From positions 23,190 to 87,189 of the forward strand of contig JAURKY010000003.1 of NCBI GenBank assembly GCA_030831475.1: a DNA stretch of 64,000 nucleotides, in the 5' to 3' direction. The DNA comes from Burkholderiales bacterium (GTDB lineage Bacteria > Pseudomonadota > Gammaproteobacteria > Burkholderiales > Methylophilaceae). This document shows positions 62,799 through 64,000 of this stretch, piece by piece (position 1 is the first letter of the stretch; every line of letters begins with the position of its first letter). Below the pieces are notes generated by a model. That model ran no database searches and had not been told where the DNA came from. It saw nothing but the letters and a program-made list of their open reading frames with translations. A program made the position numbers and the translations under genes.

Positions 62799-63815
62799 AT
62801 GATTTTATTAAACAATTTAAAAATGTTTCTTTTGGCTTTTGCTGTTTTGTTTGCAAATACTTTATATGCCTATCCTCCACAAGCAGAGCTCTTCGGTTTA
62901 AATAAATCCATGGTTCAACTCTGGGTGAGTTACCCTAATGGTGTTACAGGAACTGGATCGGGTGTTCTTATCAAAGATAATCATGTAGCTACCGATTGCC
63001 ATGTTTTCGCCGATGCTGAAGGAGTTAATGTAGTCAAATATCATGATACCTTTAGCCCAATCGCTGTTTATGCAGACTGGGAACATGATTTATGTATTTT
63101 AAAGTTTGATAACTTAAATTTACCCCCAGTAAATATTAGAACATCTGAAGATATAAGTTATGAAGAGAAAGTTTTTTCCCTGACTTTTCCTAATGACAAC
63201 CCCGTACCACTTCCTTCTTATGGAAAAGTAAAAGCGCTTTACCCTTTTGATGGTGGAAATATTATTCGTACATCAGCATCTTTTACTGTGGGGTCCAGTG
63301 GAGGAGCGCTCTTTGATCTCGATTTTAATTTGATTGGAATAACGACCTTCAAAAGTCCTGGTAAAAGATATGGCTACTTTTACTGCCTTCCATCGGAGTG
63401 GATTGTTAAATTATTAGAAACTAAAGAATCCAATAGCCTTAAGAGTACGGCCCCACCTTTCTGGAGCCTGCCAGATGATCAAAAACCTTACTTTATGCAA
63501 GTGGTTATCCCTATGAATGAAGAAAATTGGAGCAAGTTAGAAAGAGTTGCCAAGACTTGGATTGAAGATGAGCCTAATAATGCTGATGCATACTATTATT
63601 TCGGTTTAGCCAAGCACAAACAAAAGCACGAAAATGAAGCTATTACAGTTTTTAAAAAGGCTTTTAGCCTTAATGGTAAGCACATTGATTCACTCATTGA
63701 AATTGCTTTAATTGCCAAAGAAACCAGTAATCAGCTTGAATTTGATTGGGCTTACGCAGAAATTTTAAAAATTGATGAAGATTTTTCTGAGTCTTTTTTT
63801 AAAAAGAAAACTTAA
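62799..63815 (+). CDS. Secreted trypsin-like serine protease with C-terminal TPR-like region
   Basis: Signal peptide; GTGSGVLI, ATDCHVFA (His), DWEHDLCIL (Asp), TVGSSGGALFD (Ser); NNADAYYYFGLAKHKQKHENEAITVFKKAF. Confidence 0.85.
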   Translation: MILLNNLKMFLLAFAVLFANTLYAYPPQAELFGLNKSMVQLWVSYPNGVTGTGSGVLIKDNHVATDCHVFADAEGVNVVKYHDTFSPIAVYADWEHDLCILKFDNLNLPPVNIRTSEDISYEEKVFSLTFPNDNPVPLPSYGKVKALYPFDGGNIIRTSASFTVGSSGGALFDLDFNLIGITTFKSPGKRYGYFYCLPSEWIVKLLETKESNSLKSTAPPFWSLPDDQKPYFMQVVIPMNEENWSKLERVAKTWIEDEPNNADAYYYFGLAKHKQKHENEAITVFKKAFSLNGKHIDSLIEIALIAKETSNQLEFDWAYAEILKIDEDFSESFFKKKT

Positions 63816-63817
63816 GT

Positions 63818-63894
63818 TGGCGCGCCCGAAGAGATTCGAACTCCTGACCCCTTGGTTCGAAGCCAAGTACTCTATCCAGCTGAGCTACGGGCGC
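63818..63894 (-). tRNA. tRNA-Arg (anticodon TCG), CCA encoded
   Basis: Cloverleaf by eye; loop CTTCGAA, anticodon at 63858-63860. Confidence 0.93.
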
Positions 63895-63908
63895 ATACCC
63901 ATAGTAAT

Positions 63909-63985
63909 TGGCGCGCCCGAAGAGATTCGAACTCCTGACCCCTTGGTTCGTAGCCAAGTACTCTATCCAGCTGAGCTACGGGCGC
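63909..63985 (-). tRNA. tRNA-Arg (anticodon ACG), CCA encoded
   Basis: Cloverleaf by eye; loop CTACGAA, anticodon at 63949-63951; otherwise identical to the neighbouring tRNA. Confidence 0.95.
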
Positions 63986-64000
63986 GTGGCGTCATTATAA

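What the first reader, a model, noticed from the sequence alone, without database searches (positions are those of the whole stretch)
63818..63985. Tandem tRNA-Arg genes identical at 76 of 77 positions; the only difference is wobble base 34 (ACG vs TCG)
Seen directly: two 77-nt tRNA genes, CCA included, are separated by 14 nt. The sole difference is ttcgAagcc vs ttcgTagcc on the plus strand, which makes the anticodons TCG and ACG. Established knowledge: bacterial tRNA-Arg(ACG) is deaminated by TadA to ICG and reads CGU/CGC/CGA, while CGG usually needs tRNA-Arg(CCG). Inference: a recent tandem duplication followed by one A34 to T34 change created a UCG isoacceptor reading CGA/CGG. In a streamlined genome it could have replaced tRNA-Arg(CCG).
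Basis: partly seen in the sequence, partly recalled or inferred. Interest (0 to 1): 0.75.

Follow-up and report, generated by a model that had tools for sequence, protein, structure and literature searches.

The report
Arginine tRNA copy with switched anticodon
In a group of tiny-genome ocean and lake bacteria, one of two side-by-side arginine tRNA genes changed a single anticodon letter and appears to have taken over from another arginine tRNA that these bacteria lost; it is a clean, old, clade-wide case of a known kind of tRNA evolution.

Summary
In detail: two 77-nt tRNA-Arg genes, 14 nt apart, differ only at wobble base 34 (TCG at 63818-63894, ACG at 63909-63985, minus strand). The window is from an OM43-clade Methylophilaceae MAG (59% complete).

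The replacement idea is strongly supported in relatives. In 31 same-genus genomes the TCG pattern is in 27 and tRNA-Arg(CCG) in none. A closed relative has only ACG, TCG, TCT and CCT. Ca. Methylopumilus shares this state; almost all larger-genome Methylophilaceae keep CCG and lack TCG. The old CCG site is a 21-bp gap in the closed genome.

'Recent' is wrong. The pair predates the OM43/Methylopumilus split and sits in the ancient alaS-Ser(GCT)-Arg(ACG) neighbourhood (E. coli serV-argVYZQ). Near-identity is at least partly concerted evolution: T-stem variants change in both copies together, while the ACG-first, TCG-second order never varies.

Most likely TadA-made ICG reads CGU/CGC(/CGA) and UCG reads CGA/CGG (inferred). 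TCG-present, CCG-absent recurs in other small genomes (SAR86, other Burkholderiales). UCG with CCG loss is already published for Mollicutes, so this is a new, well-resolved member of a known kind.

The parts
63818..63894 (-). tRNA-Arg(TCG), 77 nt, CCA encoded; the derived, second gene of the pair
   Evidence: ARAGORN; sequence and single difference
63860..63860 (-). wobble base 34 of the TCG copy (A on the plus strand, T in the gene); the only base that differs from the ACG copy
63895..63908 (-). 14-nt spacer with no promoter-like TATAAT
63909..63985 (-). tRNA-Arg(ACG), 77 nt, CCA encoded; the parental-type, first gene of the pair, expected TadA substrate
   Evidence: ARAGORN; identical body in outgroups with ACG only
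63994..63999 (-). TATAAT, probable -10 box of the pair, conserved upstream of ACG in relatives
   Evidence: sequence; conservation in OM43 and Methylopumilus loci; promoter activity not tested

Best explanation
The pair descends from the old alaS-neighbourhood tRNA cluster Ser(GCU)-Arg(ACG)n, the counterpart of E. coli serV-argVYZQ. In the common ancestor of the genome-streamlined Methylophilaceae (OM43 and Ca. Methylopumilus) the downstream Arg(ACG) copy changed A34 to T34, giving tRNA-Arg(UCG), and the separate tRNA-Arg(CCG) gene was lost. Decoding today (inferred): TadA turns the first tRNA into ICG, reading CGU, CGC and weakly CGA; UCG reads CGA and, by wobble, CGG. Both are needed, so selection holds the two wobble bases apart while gene conversion or repeated block duplication keeps the rest of the two adjacent genes nearly identical. 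Shown here: anatomy, synteny, distribution, absence of CCG and its empty site in a closed relative, linked change of both copies. Inferred: decoding, modification state, expression, order of gain and loss, gene conversion as the mechanism.
For: Pair read in 25 other genus genomes; TCG pattern in 27/31 and CCG pattern in 0/31 genus genomes. Family survey: the two small-genome genera have TCG and no CCG; 108 of the other 111 genomes have a CCG-pattern hit and none has a confirmed TCG tRNA. Full tRNA set of closed G003 lacks CCG. CCG site: 234-bp gap holding the tRNA in G063, 21 bp between orthologous ORFs in G003. Outgroups have ACG at the same locus; E. coli has recA-recX-alaS-csrA-serV-argVYZQ, all ACG. 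TadA in 14/14 near-complete genus genomes. CGG about 1.0 and CGA 5.5 per 1000 codons in G003, so CGG still needs a reader. T-stem state agrees between copies in 26/26 genomes and changes at least twice on a marker tree.
Against: Decoding and expression are untested. The window's own genome is 59% complete, so CCG absence there rests on relatives. 17 of 31 pairs differ at two positions and three at more, so homogenisation is incomplete. The concerted-change test uses a single adjacent gene tree. Some larger genomes carry TCG together with CCG, so TCG gain does not force CCG loss.
Confidence: 0.85

Rival explanations
1. One reading: a recent tandem duplication in this lineage followed by one A34 to T34 mutation, so that 76/77 identity reflects youth.
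For: The two copies are nearly identical and adjacent; larger-genome Methylophilaceae examined have a single ACG at the locus.
Against: The pair is shared by the whole OM43 genus and by Ca. Methylopumilus; ACG-ACG tandems exist in two other families at the Ser(GCT) locus.
Confidence: 0.04
2. Several independent re-duplications of ACG, each followed by the same A34 to T34 change, rather than one origin plus gene conversion.
For: T-stem state is shared within genomes; in L041, L042 and L044 about 12 to 16 nt of 3' flank is shared by both copies; similar switches did occur in other lineages.
Against: Gene order and the identity of the switched copy are constant in all 31 pairs read; TCG-specific changes such as T45 persist within clades; each re-duplication would need the same mutation again.
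Confidence: 0.1
3. The TCG gene came by horizontal transfer from another lineage such as SAR86, where a similar tRNA-Arg(TCG) exists.
For: Nearly the same anticodon arm occurs in SAR86, Woeseia, Legionellales and Manganitrophus; near-identical TCG tRNAs in two Burkholderiales families suggest that transfer does happen (L103, L105).
Against: The body of the OM43 TCG gene matches its own ACG neighbour rather than SAR86 (T-arm differences), it lies in tandem in the native cluster, and it changes together with ACG.
Confidence: 0.03
4. The TCG copy is a non-functional or redundant variant and CGG is read in another way, for example by ICG or by leftover unmodified A34.
For: CGG is rare; some Mollicutes read CGN with a single ACG tRNA (PMC3711424); genome G346 shows neither TCG nor CCG by pattern.
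Against: The gene keeps a full tRNA structure, CCA and an unchanged anticodon across two genera, and one variant in the acceptor stem is compensated (6/68 in L032, L035, L036), which points to selection on function.
Confidence: 0.05

Closest known systems
tRNA-Arg(UCG) with loss of tRNA-Arg(CCG) in Mollicutes (Yokobori et al. 2013, PMC3711424)
   Same: CCG lost, UCG present, reduced low-GC genome, CGG rare, AGA preferred.
   Different: Many of those Mollicutes also lost tadA, and some replaced ACG by GCG; here TadA and ACG are kept, and the UCG gene is a tandem near-copy of ACG. Unrelated, host-associated lineage.
tRNA anticodon switching (yeast experiment, PMC3868979; eukaryote comparison, PMC3923123; discussed for bacteria in PMC7661048)
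   Same: One anticodon base changes in a spare copy and covers for a missing isoacceptor of the same amino acid.
   Different: Natural, fixed across two bacterial genera, and the loss site of the replaced gene is visible.
E. coli serV-argVYZQ tandem tRNA cluster
   Same: recA-recX-alaS neighbourhood; Ser(GCU) followed by tandem Arg genes.
   Different: All four E. coli Arg genes are identical ACG; here there are two and the second is TCG. In many OM43 genomes about 1.6 kb or more separates Ser from Arg.

Membership tests
Functional bacterial tRNA-Arg gene | Cloverleaf, CCA end, arginine anticodon, A20 and C35 identity bases | tested here: met
   ARAGORN calls both genes; A20 and C35 are read from the sequence. 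Their role as ArgRS identity bases is established E. coli knowledge, not tested here.
Functional bacterial tRNA-Arg gene | Expressed, modified and charged with arginine | not testable with these tools
   Needs tRNA-seq or aminoacylation.
Anticodon switch replacing a lost isoacceptor | New anticodon arose from a gene of another anticodon at the same locus | tested here: met
   Outgroups have ACG at the syntenic site; bodies identical.
Anticodon switch replacing a lost isoacceptor | The replaced gene is absent and its old site is empty | tested here: met
   0/31 genus genomes; closed G003; 21-bp site. Own genome incomplete.
Anticodon switch replacing a lost isoacceptor | The new tRNA reads the orphaned codon (CGG) | not testable with these tools
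   Inferred from wobble rules only.
Concerted evolution of tandem tRNA genes | Copies within a genome share variants that differ between genomes | tested here: met
   T-stem TCTTC or TTCTC agrees in 26/26 genomes, at least two changes on the marker tree; shared 3' flank in one clade.
Concerted evolution of tandem tRNA genes | Gene conversion rather than re-duplication as the cause | tested here: inconclusive
   Both fit; constant order and TCG-only variants favour conversion.
Mollicute-type CGN decoding (PMC3711424) | tadA lost alongside UCG gain | tested here: not met
   TadA over the curated cut-off in all 14 near-complete genus genomes.

The most novel reading that the evidence does not exclude
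Small-genome Pseudomonadota have repeatedly and independently rebuilt the arginine CGN box into the two-tRNA form used by their other four-codon boxes (G34 or I34 plus U34), by switching A34 to U34 in a spare ACG gene and dropping CCG; in OM43 the switched gene is kept one to four bases from its parent by continuing gene conversion, with selection protecting the wobble base.
Probability: 0.5. Interest if true: 0.6.

Novelty: new member of a known kind. Interest (0 to 1): 0.42.

Why it matters
It is an unusually legible case of a tRNA set being rewired: parent gene, derived gene, outgroup state and the empty site of the lost gene can all be read. It predicts that CGG in abundant marine and freshwater bacteria (OM43, Methylopumilus, probably SAR86) is read by a U34 tRNA, which bears on codon-usage models for streamlined genomes. 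A tandem pair that must differ at one base while recombining is also a natural test of how gene conversion and selection balance inside a 77-base gene, and cultured isolates exist to test it.

Tried and rejected
Assembly artefact at the contig end: rejected, since the pair is in closed and isolate genomes. Recent origin: rejected by distribution. Horizontal origin from SAR86-like donors: disfavoured by the body sequence. TCG-pattern hits in other Methylophilaceae genera: those checked with ARAGORN (L088-L095) are not tRNAs. Literature searches for tRNA-Arg with UCG and TadA, or with SAR86, found nothing; a report on this pair in OM43 was not found, but the held library lacks most subscription papers.

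Full report
WHAT IS THERE. The window ends with two tRNA-Arg genes on the minus strand: TCG at 63818-63894 and ACG at 63909-63985, each 77 nt with CCA encoded. They are identical except for the wobble base and are 14 nt apart. In transcription order ACG comes first. A TATAAT hexamer lies just upstream of ACG (63994-63999) and is conserved in relatives, with none in the spacer, so the two are probably one transcript (promoter activity untested). The neighbouring trypsin-like reading frame on the plus strand ends at 63815 and runs convergently into the pair.

WHERE IT COMES FROM. The window is part of a 707-kb, 8-contig, 59%-complete genome and lies at the end of contig 2. A scan of named genomes with the TCG gene's anticodon-to-T-arm sequence brought up OM43-clade Methylophilaceae: KB13, HTCC2181, LSUCC0665 and BACL14 bins. 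The sister genus in the family survey (g38) corresponds to Candidatus Methylopumilus.

IT IS OLD AND CLADE-WIDE. The ACG-TCG pair was read in 25 other genomes of the genus. By pattern, TCG is in 27 of 31 genus genomes; the four without it also have no close match to the ACG partner, so the locus is probably missing from those assemblies. Methylopumilus genomes carry the order Ser(GCT)-Arg(ACG)-Arg(TCG)-Lys(TTT), and all nine g38 genomes of at least 91% completeness have TCG. The duplication and switch therefore predate the split of the two genera; 'recent' is wrong.

THE CCG GENE IS GONE. The CCG pattern is in 0 of 31 genus genomes and 0 of 16 Methylopumilus-group genomes, but in 108 of the 111 other Methylophilaceae sampled. 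At least one of those 108 hits (G079, L081) is not a tRNA by ARAGORN, and G154 and G179 had no hit, so the counts are approximate. The closed genome G003, read whole in overlapping pieces, has 35 tRNAs and a tmRNA; its arginine tRNAs are ACG, TCG, TCT and CCT. In several relatives the CCG gene sits beside the same small ORF, and in G063 it lies in a 234-bp gap between that ORF and the next. The G003 orthologues of those two ORFs are 21 bp apart. That is the empty site of the lost gene.

WHERE THE SECOND COPY COMES FROM. Upstream of the pair lie orthologues of the genes next to Ser(GCT)-Arg(ACG) in other Methylophilaceae; by length and order they look like a 406-aa gene, alaS, recX and recA (names by inference). 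E. coli has recA-recX-alaS-csrA-serV followed by four identical Arg(ACG) genes. Other Methylophilaceae examined have one ACG here, while two other Burkholderiales families have ACG-ACG. The direction A34 to T34 is therefore clear. Whether the second ACG was retained from an old array or arose by a new duplication in the streamlined ancestor is open.

WHY THE COPIES STAY ALIKE. Across the genus the 3' T-stem is TCTTC in some species and TTCTC in others, and both copies agree in all 26 genomes read. On a tree of the adjacent protease-like gene this needs at least two changes, each touching both copies. In one clade (L041, L042, L044) about 12 to 16 nt of 3' flank is also shared by both copies. 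Other changes are confined to TCG (position 45 G to T; the compensated 6/68 pair), so homogenisation is incomplete: of 31 pairs, 11 differ at one position, 17 at two, 2 at three and 1 at four. Order and wobble identity never vary. The simplest reading is gene conversion plus selection keeping both anticodons; re-duplication with a repeated A34 mutation is not excluded.

HOW IT PROBABLY WORKS. TadA is present in every near-complete genus genome, so ACG should become ICG and read CGU, CGC and CGA, as in most bacteria (PMC3711424). UCG should read CGA and, by wobble, CGG. In G003 CGG is rare (1.0 per 1000 codons) but real, and CGA is about five times commoner, so UCG would serve both. In G003 every four-codon box then has exactly two tRNAs, one with G34 (or A34/I34) and one with U34, and no C34 tRNA. 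Arginine CGN is the box where bacteria usually lack a U34 tRNA, which would explain why one had to be made before CCG could be dropped. This step is inference. E. coli CmoA and CmoB found no match in G003, so U34 may lack that modification, but a negative BLAST is weak evidence. The window's own genome has a Gly(CCC) gene that G003 lacks, so the pattern is not perfect in every member.

IT HAPPENED ELSEWHERE. In 199 genomes of the order, TCG tRNAs were confirmed in seven: G000, G067, three of family f19 (1.8-2.1 Mb, no CCG hit), and two larger genomes that keep CCG. In 299 genomes of the phylum about a dozen had real TCG tRNAs. Those tested in larger genomes keep CCG, while the 0.9-Mb G523 (ACG and TCG 64 nt apart, three differences) and the 1.5-Mb G376 have no CCG hit. 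Twelve genomes titled SAR86 or SCGC gammaproteobacteria (1.0-1.5 Mb) carry a similar TCG tRNA and no CCG hit. Legionellales and Woeseia genomes up to 3.6 Mb also showed TCG and no convincing CCG by pattern, so small size is not the only setting.

WHAT IS KNOWN. Mollicutes lost CCG, and several of them carry UCG, in clades that lack tadA (PMC3711424). [quoted passage not shown] Anticodon switching is documented in a yeast experiment, in eukaryote comparisons and in bacterial phylogenies (PMC3868979, PMC3923123, PMC7661048). The present case is a new and particularly clear member, differing from the Mollicutes in keeping TadA and ACG.

VERDICT. Observation confirmed, replacement idea supported, 'recent' rejected. 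Interest is moderate: the kind is known, but the case is clean, old, recurrent and testable.

Noticed in passing
window 63994-63999; upstream of ACG in L021-L046, L277, L301, L319: A conserved TATAAT ends about 9 nt before the mature 5' end of the ACG tRNA, which would leave a primary-transcript leader of only about 2 to 3 nt.
   Followed up: partly
L103 (G226, family f24) and L105 (G239, family f39): Near-identical tRNA-Arg(TCG) genes in two different Burkholderiales families, in genomes that keep CCG; a candidate for horizontal transfer.
   Followed up: no
G346 (family f31, 1.2 Mb, 100% complete): Neither the TCG nor the CCG pattern was found; how CGG is read there is unexplained.
   Followed up: no
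L269 and L292 (Candidatus Manganitrophus): Arg(CCG) and Arg(TCG) genes lie about 0.55 kb apart in genomes of over 4 Mb from another phylum, with an anticodon-to-T-arm stretch close to the OM43 one.
   Followed up: no
G000:C1:14150-14220 (L007): The window's genome has a tRNA-Gly(CCC) that the closed relative G003 lacks, so tRNA sets differ within the genus.
   Followed up: no
L041, L042, L044: About 12 to 16 nt of 3' flank is shared by both Arg copies in this clade only, the mark of a recent conversion or duplication tract.
   Followed up: partly
window 62799-63815: A trypsin-like reading frame ends 2 nt short of the 3' end of the TCG tRNA and is convergent with it; the same gene neighbours the pair across the genus although its sequence varies widely.
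   Followed up: no
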